Shown: positions 16,671-30,626 of the stretch, in pieces
Numbering within the stretch: position 1 is the stretch's first letter
How the letters are laid out: each line of letters begins with the position of its first letter
NCBI GenBank assembly: GCA_021736185.1
Contig: JAIPGJ010000014.1
Location: forward strand, 1 to 39,065
Direction: 5' to 3'
Length of the DNA: 39,065 nucleotides
From: Fidelibacterota bacterium
GTDB taxonomy: Bacteria; Fidelibacterota; UBA8477; JABMPR01
Program-made: the position numbers and the translations under genes
The notes under the pieces: model-generated
Told to the model about the DNA's origin: nothing
The model's database searches: none
Seen by the model: the letters and a program-made list of their open reading frames with translations, nothing else

Positions 16671-17695
16671 TAATTAACTCCGCTTTCACCAAGAGTATCA
16701 TCAAGAAGCGCATTTTGTTTTTGATAGGCCTTCCATCTGAGTTCAAGACGGGGGCTTATAAATAAAGCCACTGCGACGACAGGGAGGGCTCCCATGATAT
16801 CTACCACATAATGGTATCTCAGATACACGGTGGCAAGAGGCAGGGAAATAGCCAGGGGCAGCTGAATCCAGAAAAAAGTCCGATGATACCGCCAGGCCAT
16901 GATCATGGTGAGTAATACGATGGCATTGTGCATGGAAGGGAAGGCATCCCGGACACGGTGAGGAGCCATATCCACGATGCTGCGGGTGAGCCCTGAAATA
17001 ATTGATGTATCCTTCCAGATATCCGTATGATAGAGCTTAGAAATCACCAGATAGGGTGATGAGGCAGGAAAAATAATATAACTGACAAAACCAATAAAAT
17101 AGCTGATCATCATGGTGAGCATCAGGATTCTAAATTCTCGGTATTGCTGTTTACGATAAAGAATGACCAGGAGAATGAGCGTCATGACATAATAATTTAT
17201 ATAGGTCAATGCGAACCAATCTGTTAATCGTGGATGGTAAAATTGTTCAGCCCAGACAGACGGTTGGATTCCAAAAAGTTTTCCATCTAGGGTTGCCAGT
17301 ATATGGTGGATGTCCTGGGGATGGATGATAAAAATGGCATCCTGAATATTGAAATAAATGATCAGAATGAAGATAAAGGGCATAAAATCCCGTATGATCT
17401 GGAAGCCCTTGTTTCTAGCCTGATAGAGAATCGAACGATAAAACAAAAAGGTGAAAAAAATGGAAACAAGAATGCGGGAAATATTCAAGGGAAGATTTTG
17501 CGCTTCTGGAAGTTGAATCACGTAAACATACAGGTTGGCGAAACTGGCAAAAAGGATCGTAAATGCAATCAGCCCAAGACCGATGAGCTCCTCAACGCGG
17601 AGAGCCTGCAGCAAGGTATTATTGATAATGAATCGCTCTTTCATTGGCCATAAAATAAGGTGTGGATTAACAATTCGTAGGTCAATTTTGCTCAT
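16667..17695 (-). CDS. PAP2/AUR1-like integral membrane phosphotransferase or phosphatase (paralogue 1)
   Basis: A 342-residue polytopic membrane protein (about six hydrophobic spans) with PAP2-superfamily active-site motifs in the arrangement of yeast Aur1/inositol-phosphorylceramide synthases: 'RDAFPSMHNA' (catalytic-type His256) and 'YLRYHYVVDI' (Arg293, His295/Asp299 region). Aur1-type enzymes move phosphoinositol from phosphatidylinositol to ceramide; other PAP2 proteins are lipid phosphatases. It is divergent from the inositol-phosphate synthase gene and clearly paralogous to the protein at 20317-21288, sharing 'SVWAEQFYHPRLTDW' and the 'REFRILMLTMM' block. The two copies may divide the roles of PI-phosphate phosphatase and headgroup transferase. 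An internal ATG at codon 18 is an alternative start. Confidence 0.8.
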   Translation of the reverse strand: MSKIDLRIVNPHLILWPMKERFIINNTLLQALRVEELIGLGLIAFTILFASFANLYVYVIQLPEAQNLPLNISRILVSIFFTFLFYRSILYQARNKGFQIIRDFMPFIFILIIYFNIQDAIFIIHPQDIHHILATLDGKLFGIQPSVWAEQFYHPRLTDWFALTYINYYVMTLILLVILYRKQQYREFRILMLTMMISYFIGFVSYIIFPASSPYLVISKLYHTDIWKDTSIISGLTRSIVDMAPHRVRDAFPSMHNAIVLLTMIMAWRYHRTFFWIQLPLAISLPLATVYLRYHYVVDIMGALPVVAVALFISPRLELRWKAYQKQNALLDDTLGESGVNY

Positions 17696-17852
17696 CTGAG
17701 GAGATATTATAAAGTCCCCACCTTACGAGGATTTTCATAAGTTGTACCACCCCTGACAATCCAAGGATAAATGGACCAATCCATGCCTTGAACTGGCGGG
17801 GAGTAAGTTTAAATTTTTACCATTATTGTTCATAGAAATCTATTGATAGAGT

Positions 17853-17869
17853 GAGAGGAGTATTTTGTG
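17853..17869 (+). promoter_or_regulatory. Ribosome-binding site fixing a GTG start for the inositol-phosphate synthase
   Basis: GAGAGGAG ends at 17860, six bases before the GTG at 17867. This supports the GTG start of the following gene. The 171-base divergent gap to the PAP2-like gene must hold promoters for both directions, but no convincing -10/-35 pair was identified. Confidence 0.7.
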
Positions 17870-19177
17870 GATACAAAAGCACCAGAGGGGAAACTGGGAG
17901 TACTAATCCCCGGATTAGGGGCCGTATCAACGACATTCATAGCCGGTGTTCATGCCATTATTAGCGGACACTCCGCTCCCATTGGAAGTGTCACTCAAAT
18001 GGGGACCATTCGTCTGGGAAAGCGGACAGAAAACCGCAGCCCCAAAATAAAAGACTTTGTACCTCTTGCCAAATTGGAGGATCTGGTTTTCGGAGCCTGG
18101 GATATTTTCGAAGACGATGGATATCAAGCTGCCTCGAGGGCTCAGGTGTTGACACCTCAGGATCTGGAAATGGCACGACCCGCTTTGGAATTGGTCAAAC
18201 CCATGAAAGCCGTTTTTGACCGGGCCTATGTAAAAAATCTGGATGGTGTACACAAAAAATCTGCTCCCAATAAAATGCTCCTCGCAGAAATGCTCATGGA
18301 TGATATAAAATCATTCAGAGCGACAAATAAGACAAGTCGCGAAGTCATGATCTGGTGTGCCAGCACAGAAGCCTATCTGGAACCCTCAGACATTCACAGC
18401 AGCCTGGAAAAATTTGAAGCTGCCCTGCTTGATAACGACCCACTGATTGCTCCAAGTATGATTTATGCCTATGCCGCCTTGAAAAGTGGCGTACCCTTTC
18501 TCATGGGGGCTCCCAACCTGACCGTTGACATCCCGGCCATTCAGGAACTGGCCATGGCCCAGGGTCTACCCATTGCGGGAAAAGACTTCAAAACAGGACA
18601 AACCCTGATGAAAACCATTCTGGCGCCAGGATTAAAATCTAGAATGCTGGGTGTTGAGGGCTGGTTTTCTACCAACATTCTGGGGAATCGGGATGGCGAA
18701 GTCCTGGATGATCCCATGTCCTTTAAATCCAAAGAAGTCTCGAAAAAGGGAGCTCTCGATTACATCCTCCAGCCTGAAACTTACCCGGAACTCTACAAGG
18801 ATCTTTATCATAAGGTCAGAATCAATTATTATCCGCCCCGTGGTGATGCCAAAGAAGGCTGGGATAATATCGATATTTTCGGCTGGATGGGCTATAAAAT
18901 GCAAATCAAGATTGATTTTCTCTGTCGCGACTCCATTCTGGCTGCCCCTATTGTTCTGGATCTGGTCTTATTCGCTGATCTGGCTCATCGCAGCAAGATG
19001 CGTGGTATTCAGGAGTGGTTATCCTTCTATTTCAAAGCACCTATGGTTGGCCCCGGACTTTACCCTGAACATGATATCTTTATTCAACTCACCAAATTAA
19101 AGAATACTCTGCGCTGGATGATGGGAGAGGAACTTATAACCCATGTGGGGCATGAATATTATGATAGCTACGAATAG
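17867..19177 (+). CDS. ino1: myo-inositol-1(3)-phosphate synthase
   Basis: A 436-residue protein of the Ino1/MIPS family, which uses NAD to convert glucose-6-phosphate to inositol-3-phosphate, the first committed step of inositol lipid synthesis. The NAD-binding loop is 'IPGLGAVSTTFIAG' (14-27). The catalytic segment 'AGKDFKTGQTLMKT' (237-250) holds conserved lysines, followed by 'STNILGNRDGEVL' and 'KVRINYYPPRGDAKEGWDNI'. The length is intermediate between the short actinobacterial/archaeal forms and eukaryotic ones. It heads a plus-strand run with the CDP-alcohol phosphatidyltransferase (14-base gap), a small membrane protein and a PAP2-like gene, the gene set expected for phosphatidylinositol synthesis and onward transfer. 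Confidence 0.93.
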   Translation: MDTKAPEGKLGVLIPGLGAVSTTFIAGVHAIISGHSAPIGSVTQMGTIRLGKRTENRSPKIKDFVPLAKLEDLVFGAWDIFEDDGYQAASRAQVLTPQDLEMARPALELVKPMKAVFDRAYVKNLDGVHKKSAPNKMLLAEMLMDDIKSFRATNKTSREVMIWCASTEAYLEPSDIHSSLEKFEAALLDNDPLIAPSMIYAYAALKSGVPFLMGAPNLTVDIPAIQELAMAQGLPIAGKDFKTGQTLMKTILAPGLKSRMLGVEGWFSTNILGNRDGEVLDDPMSFKSKEVSKKGALDYILQPETYPELYKDLYHKVRINYYPPRGDAKEGWDNIDIFGWMGYKMQIKIDFLCRDSILAAPIVLDLVLFADLAHRSKMRGIQEWLSFYFKAPMVGPGLYPEHDIFIQLTKLKNTLRWMMGEELITHVGHEYYDSYE

Positions 19178-19191
19178 AACGGTGATCTGCT

Positions 19192-19812
19192 ATGCTTAAT
19201 CGTCATCACTTGGTTGAGGGTTATTATAAACTGATAAAAAACATCGTTTCACATTCACCCCTGGCCGGAATGAACCCCAATTCAATTTCCTTAACGGCTT
19301 CCATCATTGGTGTTGTAGCTGCCTTTTTTTTCCTCATTGGGCATAGTGCTATAGCAGGGATTTTTCTGTTACTCAGCGGAATTCTGGATACCCTTGACGG
19401 AACCGTAGCCCGGCTTGGCGAACGTGCCAGTAAATTTGGAGCCGTATTGGACTCCAGCCTGGACCGTTATGTTGAGATGTTTGTTTTTATGGGAATCACT
19501 TACCATTTTAAGGACAGTCCCATGTTCTTCTGGTCATTCCTGGCCATTATGGGATCCATGATGGTGAGTTATATTCGAGCGAGAGCTCAATCCCTGGGAG
19601 TCCAGGAACTGGTTGGCTTCATGCAGCGCTTTGAACGATTTGTGATTCTTGCTGCGGGAGCCATTTTTAATGCCTGGGGTGTGGGATATTTCGGATCTGA
19701 AATTGTGTTGGAGATCGCTATTATCTTTTTAGCTCTGGGTACCAATTACACGGCCTACCAGCGTTTGATGATCGTAAAAAAAGTTGAGGAAGAACCAGCT
19801 GATCCCTCCTAA
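19192..19812 (+). CDS. CDP-alcohol phosphatidyltransferase, probable phosphatidylinositol-phosphate synthase
   Basis: A 206-residue membrane protein with the full CDP-alcohol phosphotransferase signature: Asp-x2-Asp-Gly-x2-Ala-Arg in 'LDTLDGTVAR', then eight residues, Gly, three residues, Asp, three residues, Asp ('GAVLDSSLD'). 'SYIRARAQSLG' further on resembles the basic segment that binds the inositol-phosphate headgroup in mycobacterial and archaeal PI-phosphate synthases. Directly after the inositol-phosphate synthase gene, it most likely joins CDP-diacylglycerol to inositol-3-phosphate, giving phosphatidylinositol phosphate. PG-phosphate synthase is the alternative by family alone; context argues against it. 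Its 3' end overlaps the next gene by 29 bases. Confidence 0.88.
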   Translation: MLNRHHLVEGYYKLIKNIVSHSPLAGMNPNSISLTASIIGVVAAFFFLIGHSAIAGIFLLLSGILDTLDGTVARLGERASKFGAVLDSSLDRYVEMFVFMGITYHFKDSPMFFWSFLAIMGSMMVSYIRARAQSLGVQELVGFMQRFERFVILAAGAIFNAWGVGYFGSEIVLEIAIIFLALGTNYTAYQRLMIVKKVEEEPADPS

Positions 19813-20278
19813 AATTCTGGCACTATTCCCCCTGCTTCTGGCCCAATACACTCTGGGAAAAAAAGCCTCCTTTCCTTTGGGCCTTCTTATGGGTTTCAAT
19901 GTCTGGGAAATTGGTTTAGTTGTTATCCTCTCCGACTTTATCCTCATGGCTGTCATCGATCACATTTTTGATTTGTCCTTTGAGAAGTTCAAGTGGGCGA
20001 ATTATTTGCGGGAAAGAGCTGAAAGAATTCAGATACGCATGGGCAATCGGAAATGGACCGCAGCCCTGATGAGCATTGGCTGGCTGGGTCCTTTTATTAT
20101 CACATCGGTGCCCTTCGCCGGTGGAGTATGGACAGGAATATCACTGGCCAGGGTGATGAATCTTTCAAAGAGACAGACCCAACTTGCAGTGGGGTTTGGT
20201 GTCATAATAGGATGCCTGGTATTTGTTTTGGCCGCATTGGGAATCTTAAGCCTGGTGGATATTGCTGAAATAGGATAG
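19784..20278 (+). CDS. Small integral membrane protein ('small multidrug export' family, PF06695-like)
   Basis: A protein of about 164 residues with four or five hydrophobic segments and 'WLGPFIITSVPFAGGVWTG' in its middle, a Pro/Gly-rich re-entrant-looking segment that recalls the family named small multidrug export proteins and, more distantly, DedA-type proteins. Transport of drugs has not been shown for most members. The start is a TTG inside the end of the preceding phosphatidyltransferase gene, so expression is probably coupled; a slightly later start is possible. Placement between the phosphatidyltransferase and the second PAP2-like gene suggests a job with the same lipids (movement across the membrane, or an accessory to the synthase), but no catalytic residues are recognised. 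Confidence 0.6.
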   Translation: MRKNQLIPPKILALFPLLLAQYTLGKKASFPLGLLMGFNVWEIGLVVILSDFILMAVIDHIFDLSFEKFKWANYLRERAERIQIRMGNRKWTAALMSIGWLGPFIITSVPFAGGVWTGISLARVMNLSKRQTQLAVGFGVIIGCLVFVLAALGILSLVDIAEIG

Positions 20279-20316
20279 GAATGGATGGAGTACGTGATAG
20301 CTGGAGATAGGAAAGC

Positions 20317-21288
20317 ATGAGAACCTGGATACGACGGATACAAAGTTTACGAATTGAAGAAATCATTTTTCTGGTATTTCTGATCCCGTCCATACTGATC
20401 ACCATCAGAGCCAACTGGTATTTTTATACGGCCGTGGGTGAAAATTCAAAAAAGATTGAGGGCGGCATCGCTCGCATCATCGTCACCCTGATATTAATGG
20501 TGATTTTTTATTGGTTTCTGTGGTTTCGTCCAGACAAGAGACTCTTTAAATTTATCCGTGAAGTTGCTCCATTTATTTTCGCGATTGCCATCTATACCAA
20601 CCTCCATGATACGATTCATTTTGTCAATCCCCACGATGTTCATTTTCAGCTGAACGCCATTGATGAATGGATGTTTGGTGTTTCACCAACGGTATGGGCC
20701 GAACAGTTCTATCGTCCCTGGCTGACGGACTGGCTATCCTTCGCTTATATGAATTATTTCTGGATCACCGTCATCCTGGTGCTTTATATGTATTATCGGG
20801 GTGAGAAGCGAGAGTTTAGAACCGTGATGCTGACCATGATGCTCTCATATTATGGTGGTTATATGTTATATATCCTCTTTCCAGCGGCTCCCCCGCGTCT
20901 GGCCTTAGCACCGCTCTATAGCATCAATATTTTTAAGGGGACTTCTCTTATTTCAGACAGTGCCCGCGCCATGGTCAATATCAGTGCCTCCTCAGCCAGA
21001 GGGGCTTTTCCATCATTGCATTGCGCCATTACCTTTCTCACACTGGGTATGGCCTGGCGTTTCCACAAAAGGCTCTTTTGGATATTCCTGCCCATTGGTG
21101 TGTCACTCATCGTGGCCACAGTCTATCTGCGACACCATTATGTTGTAGATATCTTTGCAGGTCTTTTGCTCTGTGCAGCCGTCTGGTACATCACACCGTA
21201 TATTGATAGCAAATGGCGTAATTATCAGGCAAAAAAAGGGATCATAACGAAGAGTCCACCTGTCTTGGCTCCTGGTGCAAAGGCTTAA
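20317..21288 (+). CDS. PAP2/AUR1-like integral membrane phosphotransferase or phosphatase (paralogue 2)
   Basis: A 323-residue polytopic protein with 'RGAFPSLHCAITFL' (FPSLH 231-235, His235) and 'VYLRHHYVVDIFAG' (Arg272, His274, Asp278), the C2 and C3 motifs of PAP2/Aur1-type enzymes. 'NLHDTIHFVNPHDVHFQL' matches 'NIQDAIFIIHPQDIHHIL' in the divergent paralogue at 16667-17695, as do the 'WAEQFYRPWLTDW' and 'REFRTVMLTMM' blocks. AGGA lies shortly before the ATG. As the last gene of the inositol-lipid run it is a candidate inositol-phosphorylceramide synthase or PI-phosphate phosphatase; the sequence cannot decide which. The nearby sphingosine-phosphate lyase makes a sphingolipid acceptor plausible. 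Confidence 0.82.
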   Translation: MRTWIRRIQSLRIEEIIFLVFLIPSILITIRANWYFYTAVGENSKKIEGGIARIIVTLILMVIFYWFLWFRPDKRLFKFIREVAPFIFAIAIYTNLHDTIHFVNPHDVHFQLNAIDEWMFGVSPTVWAEQFYRPWLTDWLSFAYMNYFWITVILVLYMYYRGEKREFRTVMLTMMLSYYGGYMLYILFPAAPPRLALAPLYSINIFKGTSLISDSARAMVNISASSARGAFPSLHCAITFLTLGMAWRFHKRLFWIFLPIGVSLIVATVYLRHHYVVDIFAGLLLCAAVWYITPYIDSKWRNYQAKKGIITKSPPVLAPGAKA

Positions 21289-21340
21289 TCCCAAGAGGTT
21301 CACAGCACAGCATTATTATTCGTCTTAAGCTTCGAACTAG

Positions 21341-21346
21341 TATAAT
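21341..21346 (+). promoter_or_regulatory. TATAAT -10-like box just before the DA1-like gene
   Basis: A perfect TATAAT is 8 bases from the ATG at 21355. If it is used, transcription would begin only a few bases before the start codon, giving a nearly leaderless mRNA; no Shine-Dalgarno sequence is seen before that ATG, which agrees. No good -35 box was found. Confidence 0.35.
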
Positions 21347-21354
21347 ATTTAAGC

Positions 21355-22329
21355 ATGCAGCGATTATTCATCAGTACTATCCTTTTCCTCACTCTATTGA
21401 CGGGCATCATCCTGGCCGGGCAACCCAGATGCAGTTACTGTAATAAACCGATCAAAGGCAATTATCTCAATGTGGATGGTAAAGCCTACCATGAAGCCTG
21501 CTACCGGGACCACGTCCAACCGAGGTGTGCCTATTGCGACAAGGTGATTGATGGAAAATATGCCCAACAGGATAAGAACATGTATCACCCCCAGTGCTAC
21601 ACGGACCACATCCTGCCCAAGTGTGATATTTGTGGTCAGCCACTCCAGGGTGCTTATTACACCGATTTCTGGGGCAATTCATTTCACGCCAGCCATTCCT
21701 CTGAATTGCCAGAATGTAATAGCTGTGGCCGACTGATCTGCGAGAGTTTAACTGGCGGTGGCTATACCCTCGATGATGGGCGTCATCTTTGCCGTATCTG
21801 TAATGAAACGGCTGTAACAGATGATTTTCTCCTGGAAGCCTCACGGAGTTATGTGCGCAGATTACTGGTATCCCAGGGGATAAATAACTTGCCTGATGAA
21901 ATCCCCATTACTCTGGTAGATCGAGATGAGTTGAAGCGACTCTCCATCTACTACTCTGAGGCCATGCACGGCTTCACCGATCATAACATTCAGACTCAGA
22001 ACGGTCGCGTCATCTCAAAAGACAGTCACATCTACATCCTCTCCCATTTACCCTTGATTATGTTTCGAGCGGTGCTGGCCCATGAAATGATGCATGTTTA
22101 TCTGTTTGAAAGGAATCTTGATTTAAGATCCGATATTCGAGAAGGATTCTGCAACCTGGGGAGTGAACTGGTTTACCAGGACAACCCCTCTGAGTATGCT
22201 GAATTCCGCCTGCTAAATATGTCCAAAAGTCAGGATCCAGATTACGGTGTTGGTTATCGCAAAATGTCCAGGCTGCTGGAGCGAAGAGGCTGGAGATACC
22301 TGCTTGAGTCCCTGGATGAAATTGACTGA
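21355..22329 (+). CDS. Secreted LIM-like zinc-finger protein with DA1-type metallopeptidase domain
   Basis: A 324-residue protein. Residues 1-21 form a signal peptide. Three zinc-finger units follow with an exact 32-residue period: C26-x2-C29-x16-H46-x2-C49, C58-x2-C61-x16-H78-x2-C81, and C90-x2-C93-x16-H-x3-H at 110-114. Two more CxxC pairs are at 121/124 and 146/149. This is LIM-like, although the gap between finger halves is longer than in classical LIM. The C-terminal half matches the peptidase domain of plant DA1: 'VDRDELKRL', 'LPLIMFRAVLAHEMMHVYL' with zinc-ligand motif H243-E244-x2-H247, and Glu263 in 'REGFCNLGSELVY' as likely third ligand. Plant DA1 is a cytosolic ubiquitin-activated peptidase; here the protein is exported. 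The substrate is unknown. Confidence 0.85.
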   Translation: MQRLFISTILFLTLLTGIILAGQPRCSYCNKPIKGNYLNVDGKAYHEACYRDHVQPRCAYCDKVIDGKYAQQDKNMYHPQCYTDHILPKCDICGQPLQGAYYTDFWGNSFHASHSSELPECNSCGRLICESLTGGGYTLDDGRHLCRICNETAVTDDFLLEASRSYVRRLLVSQGINNLPDEIPITLVDRDELKRLSIYYSEAMHGFTDHNIQTQNGRVISKDSHIYILSHLPLIMFRAVLAHEMMHVYLFERNLDLRSDIREGFCNLGSELVYQDNPSEYAEFRLLNMSKSQDPDYGVGYRKMSRLLERRGWRYLLESLDEID

Positions 22330-22530
22330 TCCCCGTTTGCCCTGAAAACAGACTGCCCATACACAACAATTGTCAATCATCTTGCAATCTTAATCTTCAG
22401 TTTTTAGATTTACACCCTATAAAAAATTTTGGGTCTGTTTCGCATTGAATTCCTTGCTCGTCATCCAATTCTTGATCTCGCCTATGTAAAAAAAATGTAG
22501 ATATCTATAACCAACTAACGGGGAGAGAAA

Positions 22531-24135
22531 ATGAAGTTTACAAAAGTTGTAATCATCATTCTGGCCGCCTTGCTGCTGTTTGGGTGTGCCAAGGTGATGT
22601 TGAAAGCCGGAGGTCTGGTAGCAGGGTTCATGCAGGAAAAGACAGGTGATGTCTCAGATGCCACGGCCTTTATCAAGTTGAATAATGTTAACCGGGGACG
22701 TCCCTGGACGGCTGTGGAAATCGAATACCTTACAGACAAGGGCTGGGATCTGGAACCCACTCCCAGCAACACCTGGATCATGTTCTCAAGGGGGATGAAA
22801 TTCCTGGAGATTGATGGGTCAGTGACTTGTAATGGTGCCCCTATGAAGTTTTACGGAAATGGTATGTATTTGAGTAAACAGGATGTGAAGCCAGGTGCCA
22901 CATACGCCTTTGAGATTAATGGCTCAGCAGGTGCTCCAGTCCAATTTACAGAAACCTATTATGGTGAAAAAATCACCATCACAAAACCAGCAGAGGGTGA
23001 TGAGGTTGATCTCTCAAAAGGCTTCCAGTTAGAATGGACGCCGGGAGCTGACACCTCTAAGATTATCAAGCTCTCTATGTTGCTGACCCAAATTGGTTTG
23101 CAAAATGTATTGCCAATCTATTTAATGGAAGATGATGGTTCCGAATTTATTTCTCCTGAAATATTAGGAGAAAGTATAGGCCCAGCTCAAAAATTTCAAG
23201 CTGGCCCCAACATGATCATGCTGGAACGACATAAAGATGTGGTTCGTAATATCATGAATGGTGATGTGGTTGTCAGTTCTGTCGATACTGATGTTATTCA
23301 AGTTACAGTAACCGGGAGTGTTAAAAGTGCCCATGGGGATAACAATCCATACATCCCAGCTATAGCCGAAACAGTTGGTGATGTGACCGTCACAATCGCG
23401 CCAACCAGAGCAGTATATAATCCTGGCTCAGGTGCCCTTGCTGATATCAGTAAAATCAAAAAGATTGGATTGAGTTCTTTCGTTTTCCGAGGGAAAACAG
23501 AGCTGACAAAAGTTAAGGAGACTTCAACAACTATCACCACCACAACCTGGGGCTATGATTTTGGAGTTCCTACGCTGACCAGACTGGCAGATAATATGGC
23601 TGATGATTTTATGGTGACTTTAACCAAAGGATTTAAAGCGGAAGAAGTTCCCAAGGAGGCTTTTATCAATAATCCTTCCTACAAACGCATGGCGTCGGGT
23701 ACAGGAACATCAGGTCCCTATAACTTCTTTGTGACCGCGAGGAATCTGGCCAATTTTGATATGTGGGAAAATTATAAGGTCAAATTTGGTGGCTTGGAAT
23801 CATGGTACTATGACATGATAAAATCCTCAGGTGCAGACGCCCTGGCAGAGTGCTACATCAAAGCCCAACGCATAGAGCCAGAGGAAGGGGCTTCAGGAAG
23901 CACTTTTACCTTTAATGTGACTATCTCAGTGGCCTTTAAAGCATATCAAGGTAATATTGTCATGGCTAGCTACATTCCCGGAGCTAATGCAGTATATAAA
24001 TCTGAGACACTGGAAATCACAAAAGATACCACCTATGAGGAATTCCTCAAGGCGTTCAAGGTCGAAAATTTTATGCTGGCCTATGCTACGGCGCTTGACA
24101 AGTGGGTTGATGCCTATAACACCCTTGAAATTTGA
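22531..24135 (+). CDS. Large lipoprotein of unknown function
   Basis: A 534-residue protein with a lipoprotein signal ending 'LLLFGC' (lipid Cys19). I do not recognise the family. Residues about 150-290 contain 'ITKPAEGDEVDLSKGFQLEW', which looks like an Ig-like or FnIII-like beta domain. The rest is mixed alpha/beta with a Thr-rich patch ('STTITTTTWGYDF') and a C-terminal section rich in aromatic residues. A good ribosome-binding site (GGGGAGAG) precedes the ATG. It is single-gene by spacing, with about 200 bases upstream and a strong terminator downstream. Surface or periplasmic location is inferred from the lipobox. Confidence 0.75.
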   Translation: MKFTKVVIIILAALLLFGCAKVMLKAGGLVAGFMQEKTGDVSDATAFIKLNNVNRGRPWTAVEIEYLTDKGWDLEPTPSNTWIMFSRGMKFLEIDGSVTCNGAPMKFYGNGMYLSKQDVKPGATYAFEINGSAGAPVQFTETYYGEKITITKPAEGDEVDLSKGFQLEWTPGADTSKIIKLSMLLTQIGLQNVLPIYLMEDDGSEFISPEILGESIGPAQKFQAGPNMIMLERHKDVVRNIMNGDVVVSSVDTDVIQVTVTGSVKSAHGDNNPYIPAIAETVGDVTVTIAPTRAVYNPGSGALADISKIKKIGLSSFVFRGKTELTKVKETSTTITTTTWGYDFGVPTLTRLADNMADDFMVTLTKGFKAEEVPKEAFINNPSYKRMASGTGTSGPYNFFVTARNLANFDMWENYKVKFGGLESWYYDMIKSSGADALAECYIKAQRIEPEEGASGSTFTFNVTISVAFKAYQGNIVMASYIPGANAVYKSETLEITKDTTYEEFLKAFKVENFMLAYATALDKWVDAYNTLEI

Positions 24136-24159
24136 TAGCAGTCCTATATAGCTAGAAAT

Positions 24160-24191
24160 AAAAAAACCCGATCAATTGATCGGGTTTTTTT
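24160..24191. terminator. Bidirectional intrinsic terminator
   Basis: A perfect palindrome CCCGATC-AATT-GATCGGG (24167-24184) is flanked by a run of A on the left and a run of seven T on the right (24185-24191). It can stop transcription of the lipoprotein gene on the plus strand and of the tRNA-Glu unit on the minus strand, whose 3' end is only 2 bases away. Confidence 0.88.
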
Positions 24192-24192
24192 G

Positions 24193-24264
24193 TGACTCCT
24201 AGGAGAATTGAACTCCTGTTGCGAGAATGAAAATCTCGAGTCCTAACCACTAGACGAAGGAGCC
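24193..24264 (-). tRNA. tRNA-Glu (anticodon TTC)
   Basis: The minus strand folds into a cloverleaf: acceptor GGCTCCT paired with AGGAGTC, D arm GTCT/GGAC, anticodon stem CGAGA/TCTCG with loop TTTTCAT (anticodon TTC at 24229-24231), and T arm AGGAG/CTCCT with loop TTCAATT. The discriminator base is A. The CCA tail is not encoded (the next bases are CAA), so it must be added by a nucleotidyltransferase. Confidence 0.94.
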
Positions 24265-24329
24265 GACTTTCAAATTGCCGCGAAACTATCATGATTCAAA
24301 CGAATCACAAATGGAATTTCGCTGGCGAA

Positions 24330-24405
24330 TGGGGTGAACGGTCGGGCTTGAACCGACGACCACGCGGACCACAACCGCGCGCTCTACCAACTGAGCTACG
24401 CCCAC
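24330..24405 (-). tRNA. tRNA-His (anticodon GTG)
   Basis: The cloverleaf on the minus strand has acceptor GTGGGCG paired with CGTTCAC, anticodon loop TTGTGGT (anticodon GTG), and T arm GTCGG/CCGAC with loop TTCAAGC. The base before the acceptor is G (the G-1 needed by HisRS) and the discriminator is C. CCA follows in the genome, unlike in the tRNA-Glu 65 bases downstream. The two are probably one transcript. Confidence 0.94.
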
Positions 24406-24478
24406 CATGTACACTTTAAAAAAGCGGGTCAATATATACGGTTGGAAATGTTCCTCCAAACGCTTTTAATCCCATATT

Positions 24479-25723
24479 TTATCCTAATTTCTTAGGAACC
24501 AGATTCCTTAGAAGTTGGCTATAGACAGGGATTCCACCTGAATATTCTGGCCAAAGCTCACCCTCAATAAGAGGGCGGCAATAGTTTCGAAAGGCTTCAG
24601 TCACATGGAAGCCGTCTTCGCGAATATAATTCGCTGGAAGCACTTTCTCCTTGTTGGCGATATTCACAATATCAGTGTGTCCCACGGACCATGAATAAGG
24701 TGTGTCTGAATCTCTGACAATGGTCACCATCTGACCATTGAGGCCATCAACGGCCAGACGCACCGCTTCTTTGCCCACGGCAATAGCTTGTTCCACATCG
24801 GTCCGGGATGCGATGTGTCTCCCCGATCGTTGAAAATAATCTGGCAAGGCGTTATGAACTTTGATCTGAAGTTTATTTTTAATCAGATTTGATATAAAAT
24901 CTCCCGCGCCACCCAGCTGGGTATGACCAAACATATCAACAGTTCCGGCGTCAGCAACGAACTTGCCTTCTGCATTCTGTAATCCTTCTGAGACTGCAAT
25001 TACACAGTATCCCACCTTGGCTCGAATTCTTTCCACCTCTGCCAGAAACGCCTCTTCTCTGAATGCGATTTCAGGTAGCAGGATAATATGAGGCCCTTCG
25101 TTTTCATTATTTGCGGCCATGGCTGTTGAAGCAGCAATCCAACCAGCGTGACGACCCATGGTTTCAGCCACAAAAGCTTTGGTACTATCATGATGCATGG
25201 AAGCGACGTCGAAGGAGGCTTCACGCAGCGAAACCGCATTGTATTTCGCAACAGAGCCAAATCCAGGGCTATTATCGGTAACGGGTAAATCATTATCAAC
25301 GGTCTTGGGTACGCCGATACAGGTCACCTCATAACCCATGTCATGGGAAAGCTGTGAAATCTTATAAGCCGTGTCCATGGAGTCATTGCCACCATTATAA
25401 AAGAAGTAGCGGACATCATGAGCCTTGAAAACTTCAATAATTCTTTCGAAATCGGCGCGATTCTTCTCCAGGGATGGAAGCTTTTTGCGGCAAGATCCAA
25501 ATGCAGCTGAAGGGGTGTAAGGTAGGCGATCAATATCAGCGATACTCTCCTGACTGATATCCACCAGATTTTCTTCCAGTACCCCATTTATACCATAAAG
25601 TCCGCCATAGATGTTGTCAATGATACCTGATTGCTGGGCAGCCTTAATCACACCATAGGCCGATCCGTTAATGACGCTGGTGACACCCCCTGATTGGGCG
25701 TATACCGCATTCGATTTAGCCAT
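24479..25723 (-). CDS. pfp: Pyrophosphate-dependent 6-phosphofructokinase
   Basis: A 414-residue phosphofructokinase-family enzyme. The phosphoryl-donor site reads 'NGGNDSMDTAYK' (GGND at 111-114) with Asp in the place that is Gly in ATP-dependent enzymes, and 'PKTVDNDLP' (139-147) carries the Lys associated with PPi use. 'AETMGRHAGWIA' and 'LGGAGDF' bind substrate. It should reversibly phosphorylate fructose-6-phosphate with PPi, an ATP-saving version of glycolysis common in anaerobes. It is the last gene of the run cysQ-like, thyX, 47-aa membrane protein, pfp. GGAGAAAA precedes the ATG. Confidence 0.9.
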   Translation of the reverse strand: MAKSNAVYAQSGGVTSVINGSAYGVIKAAQQSGIIDNIYGGLYGINGVLEENLVDISQESIADIDRLPYTPSAAFGSCRKKLPSLEKNRADFERIIEVFKAHDVRYFFYNGGNDSMDTAYKISQLSHDMGYEVTCIGVPKTVDNDLPVTDNSPGFGSVAKYNAVSLREASFDVASMHHDSTKAFVAETMGRHAGWIAASTAMAANNENEGPHIILLPEIAFREEAFLAEVERIRAKVGYCVIAVSEGLQNAEGKFVADAGTVDMFGHTQLGGAGDFISNLIKNKLQIKVHNALPDYFQRSGRHIASRTDVEQAIAVGKEAVRLAVDGLNGQMVTIVRDSDTPYSWSVGHTDIVNIANKEKVLPANYIREDGFHVTEAFRNYCRPLIEGELWPEYSGGIPVYSQLLRNLVPKKLG

Positions 25724-28430: not shown

Positions 28431-30626
28431 TTATGGTTCTTGTGTGGAGTTGATGCTTAAGACACTGTCACCGAAATAATTTTCAACCTCTTTCCTGATG
28501 ATGTCACCTTCAGGAGTGTAATGGGTTGCTATCCTCAAATAGTAATCTGGATAGTACGCATATTCCACGGCTTCAATAAATCTTTTATTTTCAATGATCT
28601 CGTCTCTTTCTAAACGATCAAGTTCATCATAATAAAGCCGATTAGCACTGACAGTGGCTGATGATGTGGCGGCAAAGGTCTTCCAGATGAGTTGATGTTT
28701 CTCATTATACTGATTCTCGACGGTATGAACCGTATCGCCATTTTTATCCAGAGCGGTTTCGGTTAATACCTGACCCTGATCATTGTGGGTGTAGCTGGAA
28801 ATGATGACCGGTTTTGCCTGGGCGTCCAACTGGGCGGACTTTAAAAGTTTGCCAGCCCGAAAAGCATTCCGTTTTTCCCAGGCAACTTCACCGCTTGAAT
28901 TATAAGAAATTATCTGGATACTTTTCCCCTGTTCATTTAAACGAGAAACGACACGGGAAGTAAGCTCTCCCCTAAATTCCCCTGCAGAAATACCATCGCC
29001 TAATCCAAGGGGTGCATAGGTTGTATTGGTAATACTTCGGTTCTCATGATCATAAGTGACTTCTCGATAGATGGATCCATCTCTTTTCCGATACACCTCT
29101 TTTACAAGACGTTTCTGACCATCAAAAAATAATTCCCAATTTAGCAGACCATCATTTGTGAAACGGAGCTGGGATGTGAGCGTATCATGCAAACCATACT
29201 TAGATTCAACCCGGATATAGTCAATGGTCTCAAACCTGGAATGCTGCGTTGTATCACCCCCGGGGCGAAACAGCCACGACTCAGCTAAATCAAATTGATT
29301 ATTATAGAAGCGGGTTTTGTTGACACCACCACCATGATAAAACACCCAGGTCCCATCAAATGAATCCGGGGAAGAAAATCGTTCCGAAAAGGCTGGCAAG
29401 CTAAAAGTATCATAGAAGCGACTCACTGCAGCTGCGAAGGTGTCGGGCAAAGCAGATACTTCTTCTCTGATCACCCTATCCTGAATGTCCCGGTACCAGG
29501 TATGCAGCCATCTTGCCTCACCGGTTTGATCATAGGTCACTTCTTTATCAATGAATCCAGCAGCATTAAATTGTCGAACGGAAACTGGATGGAAACCATC
29601 GCGACTGGCAAAGATGCTGTCACGCAGGTGTTGGCCATTTTCTCCCATGACGGAACGCTTAAAGACAGCCCCACTTCTGGGGAGTCGATATTCAATAATT
29701 TTTGAACTTGAATCTGGGTGTTTTATTTCTTCTACAAAGGGGCTGCGATGATTGAATTTGTAAATATGCTGAATCTGGTTTGGTGAAGCAGGATGTTTCC
29801 AGGATCGCAGGGATTGTTGAAAAAGTTCAATATCACCCAGGCGGGTAAAAAGAAAGCGTCCATCCACACTGAAGTTGCTCCGTTCAATTTCACCCTGGGA
29901 ATTATAAAAAAGATCGGCTGACCAGGCTGGATCTCCACCAGAATATAGTTCAGAAATCCGTATGATATCACCGGCAGGACTAAAATCGTATTGATAGGGT
30001 GCTTTCCCTGGTTCATAAATAGTCTGGTGGGCCAGACGGCCGGAAGTAGTATAGGTGTTTTGCAGTTCCAGTTCATCAGAACCTGGCCGGTAGGTTTCGG
30101 TAAATAGGAGGGAATCGTTGCCATCAAAAATCATTCGCATGCGTCGATTGCCGTTCCTGTCAAACAAAAAGAATTCACGACTCAACAGTTCATTCATCTT
30201 GCCATACCAGGAGCGTTGACTCAATTGTCCCTGTTGCTTATAACTCAGGAAGCGCAGTACAAGCTGATGGTCCGGTTCAGAGAAATAGTAACCCCCAATC
30301 AGCTCTTCACCGGCATAAACCAGAGAATCAGTACGCAGGGGATGGCCATTCCGCCCCAGATAACTGATGGTTTTCAGGAGACCCTTTTCATCAAAGAATC
30401 TTTTCAGGGCAGGTCGCCCATTCTTGTAATAAACAATCTCGGTGCCCGCCTCACCCCGATATTCAATTTTGTCAGTCCAATAGCTTCGATCTTTATTTAA
30501 AAACTTGCGTACGGGACGGAGATATTCCTTAAGGTGCAAATCCGCAAGGTAACATGAATCGAGAGTTGCTGAAGTGATTGCAGAAAGCAGCAGAAGGGGT
30601 ATCAATTTTCGATAAGATTTTCTCAA
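28431..30626 (-). CDS. Exported protein with many YwqK/MORN-like beta-hairpin repeats
   Basis: A 731-residue protein starting with TTG (overlapping the stop of the 32-residue gene as TTGA). It has a signal peptide with a possible lipobox ('LDSC', Cys25). Most of the protein is a run of roughly 20-35-residue units of the type 'Y-x-x-x-G-x-x-x-x-E/K-x-x-Y/F', for example 'IVYYKNGRPALKRFFDEKG', 'LFFDGQKRLVKEVYRKRDG' and 'ISSYTHNDQGQVLTETALDK'. Such repeats resemble YwqK antitoxin/MORN and RHS/YD repeats and form extended beta-sheets. No toxin domain is seen. Function is not recognised; an envelope scaffold is plausible. Confidence 0.7.
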   Translation of the reverse strand: MRKSYRKLIPLLLLSAITSATLDSCYLADLHLKEYLRPVRKFLNKDRSYWTDKIEYRGEAGTEIVYYKNGRPALKRFFDEKGLLKTISYLGRNGHPLRTDSLVYAGEELIGGYYFSEPDHQLVLRFLSYKQQGQLSQRSWYGKMNELLSREFFLFDRNGNRRMRMIFDGNDSLLFTETYRPGSDELELQNTYTTSGRLAHQTIYEPGKAPYQYDFSPAGDIIRISELYSGGDPAWSADLFYNSQGEIERSNFSVDGRFLFTRLGDIELFQQSLRSWKHPASPNQIQHIYKFNHRSPFVEEIKHPDSSSKIIEYRLPRSGAVFKRSVMGENGQHLRDSIFASRDGFHPVSVRQFNAAGFIDKEVTYDQTGEARWLHTWYRDIQDRVIREEVSALPDTFAAAVSRFYDTFSLPAFSERFSSPDSFDGTWVFYHGGGVNKTRFYNNQFDLAESWLFRPGGDTTQHSRFETIDYIRVESKYGLHDTLTSQLRFTNDGLLNWELFFDGQKRLVKEVYRKRDGSIYREVTYDHENRSITNTTYAPLGLGDGISAGEFRGELTSRVVSRLNEQGKSIQIISYNSSGEVAWEKRNAFRAGKLLKSAQLDAQAKPVIISSYTHNDQGQVLTETALDKNGDTVHTVENQYNEKHQLIWKTFAATSSATVSANRLYYDELDRLERDEIIENKRFIEAVEYAYYPDYYLRIATHYTPEGDIIRKEVENYFGDSVLSINSTQEP

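What the first reader, a model, noticed from the sequence alone, without database searches (positions are those of the whole stretch)
21355..22329. Secreted bacterial DA1-like peptidase with tandem 32-residue LIM-like fingers
DA1 peptidases with LIM domains are known from plants as cytosolic, ubiquitin-activated growth regulators. This protein has the same order, zinc fingers then HEMMH peptidase domain, but with a signal peptide and no ubiquitin-binding motif recognised. The three fingers have an exact 32-residue period, which indicates recent or constrained tandem duplication. Activation and targets outside the cytoplasm would have to differ from plant DA1.
Basis: partly seen in the sequence, partly recalled or inferred. 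Interest (0 to 1): 0.75.

Follow-up and report, generated by a model that had tools for sequence, protein, structure and literature searches.

The report
Exported bacterial relative of plant DA1
A marine bacterium carries a probably exported protein-cutting enzyme built like the plant growth regulator DA1, with zinc fingers in front of a zinc peptidase; it belongs to a bacterial family already glimpsed in print, and the number of its outer fingers differs between lineages.

Summary
The observation largely holds. The ORF at 21355-22329 (324 aa) has an N-terminal hydrophobic segment, CxxC motifs at residues 26, 58 and 90 (period 32), HEMMH at 243-247 and Glu263. Pfam scores it above cut-off for DA1-like (39.1 vs 25 bits) and LIM (37.6 vs 22.9). 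That unit and the catalytic residues are invariant in 33 of 33 aligned sequences, window included. The outer 32-residue modules number 0 to 3 by lineage, and 7 of 46 homologues begin with LIM-type spacing instead. The modules are old, not recent.

All 46 host-phylum (Neomarinimicrobiota) homologues have a hydrophobic leader, weak in two; no leader was seen in 13 Bacteroidota relatives. Export looks like a lineage trait.

Bacterial relatives of DA1 are already in print: Dong et al. 2017, citing Burroughs et al. 2011, report Roseiflexus proteins. This is a new member of a known kind with unusual outer fingers. Most likely it is a periplasmic zinc endopeptidase whose LIM-like unit gates or positions the catalytic domain. 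Its substrates are unknown, and ubiquitin activation is very unlikely. In Bacteroidota, leaderless relatives often sit beside PP2C, VWA and kinase genes.

The parts
21355..22329 (+). DA1-like LIM-peptidase gene, 324 aa, ATG to stop
   Evidence: Pfam PF12315 and PF00412 above cut-off; under purifying selection in the genus
21355..21420 (+). N-terminal hydrophobic segment (export signal or anchor), residues 1-22
   Evidence: hydropathy only; all 46 phylum homologues (window included) have a hydrophobic stretch before the first finger, 44 of 46 with maximum 1.9 or more
21427..21522 (+). outer zinc module 1 (C26 C29 H46 C49), residues 25-56
   Evidence: motif scan; ligand counts
21523..21618 (+). 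outer zinc module 2 (C58 C61 H78 C81), residues 57-88
   Evidence: motif scan; ligand counts
21619..21714 (+). first half of the LIM-like unit (C90 C93 H111 H114), residues 89-120
   Evidence: all four ligands invariant in 33 of 33 rows
21715..21801 (+). second half of the LIM-like unit (C121 C124 C146 C149), residues 121-149; C124 lines up with plant DA1 Cys274
   Evidence: all four ligands invariant in 33 of 33 rows; plant alignment uses a recalled sequence
21802..22326 (+). peptidase domain, residues 150-324
   Evidence: AF2 model pLDDT 95.8 on 69 sequences
22081..22095 (+). HEMMH active-site motif, residues 243-247
   Evidence: H, E and H invariant in 69 of 69 rows
22141..22143 (+). Glu263, proposed third zinc ligand
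   Evidence: invariant in 69 of 69 rows; lies on the helix after the HExxH helix in the model
22150..22152 (+). Cys266, three residues after Glu263 on the same helix; candidate inhibitory cysteine (inference)
   Evidence: Cys in 64 of 69 rows, Ala in 5
17867..21288 (+). neighbouring genes, not shown to belong to the same system: myo-inositol-1-phosphate synthase, CDP-alcohol phosphatidyltransferase, small membrane protein, PAP2 protein
   Evidence: Pfam; PAP2 lies within 5 kb of the DA1-like gene in 12 of 12 genus loci, in none of 27 other loci of the phylum

Best explanation
The gene encodes an exported zinc endopeptidase of the DA1 kind. Shown by sequence: a hydrophobic leader, two outer zinc-finger modules, a LIM-like unit with ligands for two zinc ions, and a catalytic domain with HExxH and a downstream Glu, all under strong purifying selection except the leader. 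Inferred: the leader takes it across the inner membrane to the periplasm; each outer module binds one zinc and helps bind the substrate or a partner, and modules can be added or lost in 32-residue steps; the invariant LIM-like unit gates or positions the peptidase, as in plant DA1, where changing Cys274 in this unit abolishes ubiquitylation and activity; the peptidase makes limited cuts in envelope proteins. What switches it on is unknown. Ubiquitylation is very unlikely, since no UIM is seen, the site is extracytoplasmic if the leader works, and bacteria of this kind are not known to have ubiquitin (recalled). The zinc or thiol state of the 12 Cys in the zinc sites, with Cys266 beside the catalytic Glu, is my preferred guess for the switch and is the weakest step.
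For: Pfam DA1-like and LIM over cut-off. All eight LIM-like ligands and HExxH/Glu263 invariant in 33 of 33 rows; catalytic residues in 69 of 69 rows from several phyla. AF2 model of the whole protein pLDDT 92.8 and of the domain 95.8. Foldseek matches the finger region to LIM structures (PINCH LIM4-5, E 2.7e-6). Leader hydropathy. Module number varies in 32-residue steps. Cys274 of plant DA1, in the LIM-like unit, is needed for ubiquitylation and activity (passage); it lines up with C124 when a recalled plant sequence is used. Non-synonymous change far below synonymous.
Against: I saw no activity data for any bacterial member. The peptidase-domain model has no significant PDB match (best E 0.23). 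Neighbours give no consistent function: the inositol-lipid linkage is seen only in the host genus; a PAP2 match is found in 19 of 19 genus genomes while the DA1-like gene is found in 14, and one genome (G002, 94% complete) has no such gene at the matching place, so the gene is dispensable there. Export rests on hydropathy alone. A Cys-rich zinc protein in an oxidising compartment is unusual (general knowledge).
Confidence: 0.6

Rival explanations
1. It is a membrane-anchored processing protease for the neighbouring inositol-lipid or PAP2 membrane proteins, working as part of that gene cluster.
For: In 12 of 12 genus loci fetched, PAP2 lies within 5 kb of the gene, directly beside it (55-71 bases) in 8 of them, and close by after insertions or rearrangement in 4.
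Against: 0 of 27 loci from elsewhere in the phylum have PAP2 or the inositol-phosphate synthase nearby (some of these contigs are short). A PAP2 match is found in 19 of 19 genus genomes, five of which have no DA1-like gene; among those five the PAP2 match is 83-85% identical in three, 79% but partial in G007 and only 58% in G001. In G002 the cluster is followed directly by the phosphofructokinase gene.
Confidence: 0.12
2. It is mainly a zinc-holding or zinc-sensing envelope protein; the peptidase is secondary and acts on itself or when zinc is lost.
For: Four predicted structural zinc sites plus the catalytic one in 324 residues; module number changes while the LIM-like ligands are kept.
Against: The catalytic residues are strictly kept (69 of 69 rows), and 11 of 46 phylum homologues have no outer modules.
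Confidence: 0.12
3. It is a cytoplasmic protein whose hydrophobic N-terminus is not an export signal, and it works like the leaderless Bacteroidota members.
For: Relatives without a recognisable leader exist in Bacteroidota, a Fusobacteria bin, a Deltaproteobacteria bin and Sericytochromatia.
Against: A hydrophobic leader is present in all 46 phylum homologues examined, weak in two, and it has the looser constraint typical of signal peptides.
Confidence: 0.08

Closest known systems
Plant DA1 family (DA1, DAR1, DAR2; Pfam PF12315)
   Same: Order LIM, LIM-like, HExxH peptidase; the plant motif is given as HEMMHX15EE (passages). A profile of the bacterial family aligns along fingers and peptidase of the recalled Arabidopsis sequence (110.1 bits).
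   Different: No UIM found; hydrophobic leader; two outer modules linked by 8 residues in place of a canonical LIM linked by 2; HExxH to the Glu-Gly is 15 residues here and 16 in the recalled plant sequence.
Roseiflexus DA1-like proteins (named in Dong et al. 2017, citing Burroughs et al. 2011)
   Same: Bacterial proteins with four CxxC/H pairs, similar to the DA1-family C-terminal region (passage).
   Different: I could not fetch them or read Burroughs et al. 2011, so leader and module number were not compared. I recall from its abstract that prokaryotic LIM domains were proposed as partners of membrane-associated peptidases; if so, exported LIM-peptidases may already be described there.
Eukaryotic LIM-domain proteins (PINCH, paxillin)
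   Same: Zinc-module sequence and fold: paxillin E 1.6e-8 by profile, PINCH LIM4-5 E 2.7e-6 by Foldseek.
   Different: A LIM domain joins its two zinc sites by a 2-residue link (recalled); modules 1 and 2 here are separated by 8 residues.
SprT/SPRTN metalloproteases (family name recalled; PDB 6mdw)
   Same: Best but non-significant fold match of the peptidase domain, probability 0.82.
   Different: E 0.23, TM 0.38, 16% identity; Pfam SprT-like far below its cut-off (12.3 vs 25.6 bits).

Membership tests
DA1-like (Pfam PF12315) | score above the curated cut-off | tested here: met
   39.1 bits vs 25; only positions 65-125 of 213 are covered
DA1 family | LIM domain before the peptidase | tested here: met
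   PF00412 37.6 bits vs 22.9, best stretch residues 26-84; but the match spans two modules linked by 8 residues, not a canonical LIM
DA1 family | LIM-like zinc pairs directly before the peptidase | tested here: met
   C90 C93 H111 H114 C121 C124 C146 C149, invariant in 33 of 33 rows
DA1 family | HExxH plus downstream Glu | tested here: met
   invariant in 69 of 69 rows
DA1 family (plant sense) | ubiquitin-interacting motifs at the N-terminus | tested here: not met
   no UIM among hits listed up to E = 1; only 25 residues, mostly leader, precede the first finger
DA1 family (plant sense) | activation by ubiquitylation, inhibition by phosphorylation | not testable with these tools
   known for plants from passages
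DA1 family (plant sense) | cytosolic location | tested here: inconclusive
   a hydrophobic leader speaks against it, but by hydropathy only; no location experiment or signal-peptide predictor
Gluzincin / clan MA peptidase | zincin fold with HExxH and Glu on successive helices | tested here: inconclusive
   model has the two helices; no significant PDB match
Gluzincin / clan MA peptidase | peptidase activity | not testable with these tools
   needs protein

The most novel reading that the evidence does not exclude
DA1 peptidases are an old bacterial class of switchable proteases in two forms: exported ones whose substrate range is set by adding or losing 32-residue zinc modules, and cytosolic ones wired to kinase/phosphatase (TerY-P-like) loci. 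Plant DA1 would descend from a bacterial clade of mostly leader-bearing members, having lost the leader and gained ubiquitin motifs as a new switch.
Probability: 0.2. Interest if true: 0.65.

Novelty: new member of a known kind. Interest (0 to 1): 0.4.

Why it matters
Plant DA1 is studied mainly through ubiquitin. Bacterial relatives that keep the LIM-like unit and catalytic centre but show no ubiquitin motif would reveal what the core does by itself and how the LIM-like unit controls the peptidase. The shortest members (about 265 residues) are good targets for a first structure of a DA1-type peptidase domain: I found no PDB chain matching that domain by sequence and no significant one by fold.

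Tried and rejected
Mobile-element carriage: no match in the plasmid or phage collections; in viral contigs 2 stretches matched a pattern but neither was confirmed. Anti-phage role of the window protein: no PADLOC hit. Recent finger duplication: rejected. A function read from neighbours: in other families of the phylum the neighbours look like housekeeping genes that differ from family to family (phosphofructokinase likeness by BLAST, aldolase- and dehydrogenase-like names by eye; phosphoglucomutase by Pfam), so I draw no function from them. Promoter and terminator scans in 17600-24600 were at chance level (15 found vs 14.6 expected; 6 vs 6.3). Paper searches for Marinimicrobia with LIM domain, and for DA1 with UIM, LIM and horizontal gene transfer, found none; others found no paper on a bacterial DA1-like protein beyond the passages cited. 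This covers only the open library. A polymorphic-toxin paper looked relevant in a listing, but the held text has no LIM or DA1 as a whole word. PMC11143343 was seen in listings only. The plant placement in the tree is weak: one recalled sequence on a branch of 1.89, midpoint root. The HExxH-to-Glu spacing was counted by a simple pattern that misreads two rows (L040, L176).

Rows dropped: A1 uses 33 of 46 phylum homologues, chosen for spread. A2 has 69 rows: of 106 domain extracts, 69 were kept after removing those with X, of odd length or over 85% alike, and the window's own extract stands in for its copy in L001; L098-L117 were not given. One search looked at 60 of 80 loci, and three of them (L134, L154, L158) gave no neighbour table. 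The genome scan kept the best 80 of 90 relatives and used one motif pattern, so divergent members are missed. Two unrelated ORFs (L068, L069) matched the query weakly and were left out. The neighbour association in Bacteroidota has no background control.

Full report
What is there. The ORF at 21355-22329 (+) encodes 324 residues. Pfam gives DA1-like (PF12315) 39.1 bits against a cut-off of 25 at residues 211-268, and LIM (PF00412) 37.6 bits against 22.9, best at residues 26-84. CxxC motifs start at 26, 58, 90, 121 and 146; HExxH starts at 243; Glu263 follows in REGFCN. The zinc ligands read as four sites: C26 C29 H46 C49; C58 C61 H78 C81; C90 C93 H111 H114; C121 C124 C146 C149. The third is not an exact copy of the first two: it ends HxxH and carries one more residue before the His.

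How old the modules are. In 14 proteins of the host genus, the same module compared between species is 68.8%, 60.4% and 67.2% identical (modules 1, 2, 3), while within a protein modules 1 and 2 are 46.0%, modules 2 and 3 29.3% and modules 1 and 3 30.6% identical, gaps allowed (ungapped). The duplication looks older than the genus and the spacing is held by constraint. Against 10 genus relatives, non-synonymous differences are 0.14-0.26 and synonymous ones 0.71-0.84 per site; in the leader the former rise to 0.36-0.61.

Distribution. PF12315 is found in 22 of 60 genomes (host included, 59 near relatives). The protein itself finds a match in 46 of 245 genomes of the phylum, including 14 of 19 of the genus (host included in each). 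A scan of named bacterial genomes with alignment A1 gave 90 confirmed relatives from 115 stretches, of which 80 were kept. By record title these are 37 Neomarinimicrobiota (four titled only 'bacterium', on contigs that one search places in the phylum), 13 Bacteroidota, 11 Zixiibacteriota, 7 Sericytochromatia or Cyanobacteria, 6 Ignavibacteriota including Melioribacter, 2 Proteobacteria, 2 Opitutae, 1 Deltaproteobacteria and 1 Fusobacteria. Most are metagenome bins, so single-bin labels may be wrong. The closest named records are Candidatus Neomarinimicrobiota MAGs at up to 77% identity, so the window is from that phylum. Nothing was found on plasmids or phages.

Architecture varies in steps. 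Of 46 phylum homologues, window included: 11 have the LIM-like unit alone (in two of these a further CxxC lies in the leader), 1 has one extra 32-residue module, 17 (the window among them) have two, 10 have three, and 7 begin with a LIM-type first spacing (26, 27 or 23 residues between CxxC motifs). The LIM-like unit keeps its spacings of 31 (once 32) and 25 in all 46. In alignment A1 (33 of the 46) all eight LIM-like ligands, HExxH and Glu263 are invariant, while the outer ligands are largely absent where the module is absent. In alignment A2 of 69 peptidase domains across phyla, H, E, H, E and G are invariant; Cys266 is Cys in 64 and Ala in 5. Of ten representatives scanned, nine score above the DA1-like cut-off; one Rikenellaceae member scores 23.1, just below it.

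Export looks like a lineage trait. All 46 phylum homologues have a hydrophobic stretch before the first finger; its maximum is 1.9 or more in 44 of 46, and 1.70 and 1.03 in the two others. Of 13 Bacteroidota members, 8 could be measured (maximum 1.42) and 5 have fewer than 13 residues before the first CxxC. The Deltaproteobacteria member scores -0.59; the Fusobacteria member, Sericytochromatia L123 and L136 and a cyanobacterial bin (L134) have 2 to 7 residues before it. Most Zixiibacteriota, Ignavibacteriota, Proteobacteria and Opitutae rows measured do have a leader; L129 and L142 do not by this measure, with uncertain start codons. This is hydropathy, not a signal-peptide predictor.

Structure. 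AF2 on A1 gives pLDDT 92.8; Foldseek against the PDB matches the finger part to LIM proteins (PINCH LIM4-5, E 2.7e-6), with 11 matches at or below 0.001. AF2 on the peptidase domain with 69 sequences gives pLDDT 95.8, with HExxH on helix 85-103 and the Glu on helix 110-126 (domain numbering). Foldseek finds nothing significant for the domain; the best is 6mdw, protease-dependent DPC repair, E 0.23. By profile search, the 35 PDB sequences listed up to E = 1 match the finger part, and no listed best stretch reaches the peptidase domain.

Relation to plant DA1. Dong et al. 2017 (PMC5322733; [quoted passage not shown] 2011, and show that Cys274 in the LIM-like unit is needed for ubiquitylation and activity. 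Burroughs et al. 2011 is not held; from memory its abstract links prokaryotic LIM domains to membrane-associated peptidases. With an Arabidopsis DA1 sequence recalled from memory, the A1 profile aligns along fingers and peptidase (110.1 bits in all), and C274 falls on the window's C124. In a tree of 70 domains the plant row falls in a set of 22 rows with Zixiibacteriota, Ignavibacteriota, some Neomarinimicrobiota and one cyanobacterial bin (98/99), but on a branch of 1.89 and without an outgroup. HExxH to Glu-Gly is 16 residues in the plant and in 19 of the 21 bacterial rows of that set, and 15 in 43 of the 48 other rows, which hold the window (one row in each count, L176 and L040, is misread by the pattern and fits the majority). 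These are leads, not proof of descent.

Neighbours. In the window the gene follows an inositol-phosphate synthase, a CDP-alcohol phosphatidyltransferase, a small membrane protein and a PAP2 protein. PAP2 lies within 5 kb in 12 of 12 genus loci fetched, directly adjacent in 8, and in none of 27 other loci of the phylum. A PAP2 match is found in 19 of 19 genus genomes (best match only 58% identical in G001, partial in G007), five of which have no DA1-like gene; in G002 the cluster is followed directly by the next conserved gene, a phosphofructokinase. So it is an accessory gene. In Bacteroidota, 10 of 13 relatives have a PP2C gene within four ORFs (Pfam); 9 of these also have a VWA gene (by BLAST cluster, Pfam in three of them) and 7 a kinase-like gene (cluster, Pfam in four). 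This resembles the TerY-P triad (definition from a passage in PMC11090510). No background rate was measured, and five of the ten are Rikenellaceae. Plant DA1 is inhibited by phosphorylation by receptor kinases (passage in PMC9546594), so kinase control is a plausible shared theme, not a shown one.

Mechanism and verdict. Best reading: a periplasmic zinc endopeptidase, LIM-like unit as gate, outer modules as adjustable binding parts, substrate and switch unknown (0.6). The finding is real and well conserved, but bacterial DA1-like proteins were known; what is added is the probably exported form, the stepwise variable fingers and the split between leader-bearing and leaderless lineages. Whether Burroughs et al. 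2011 already describes these features I could not check.

Noticed in passing
L163, L167-L173, L175, L177 (Bacteroidota loci): Leaderless DA1-like genes lie beside PP2C (10 of 13 Bacteroidota loci), VWA (9) and kinase-like (7) genes, resembling TerY-P triads; no background control.
   Followed up: partly
L161, L174, L165: The other three Bacteroidota DA1-like genes lie beside Double-GTPase and TraG-like coupling ATPase genes (L161, L174) or a tubulin-like gene and a sub-threshold VWA-like gene (L165).
   Followed up: partly
window 17867-21288: Cluster of myo-inositol-phosphate synthase, CDP-alcohol phosphatidyltransferase, small membrane protein and PAP2: possibly an inositol-lipid pathway.
   Followed up: partly
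window 24482-25723; L051, L054-L058, L061-L066, L089; genus loci L070-L078, L080: A phosphofructokinase-like gene is in the same fetched stretch as the DA1-like gene in 10 of 12 genus loci and, at 22-29% identity, in 13 of 27 other phylum loci; may be chance or old gene order.
   Followed up: no
window 22531-24135: 534-aa protein with a lipobox-like start (by eye) and no Pfam match, next to the DA1-like gene; found in 4 of 12 genus loci fetched (some end before that place).
   Followed up: no
window 28434-30626: 731-aa protein on the minus strand with no Pfam match; looks repetitive by eye.
   Followed up: no
L129: Ignavibacteriales DA1-like gene next to a 1430-aa protein whose start resembles a secreted protease (by eye only).
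   Followed up: no
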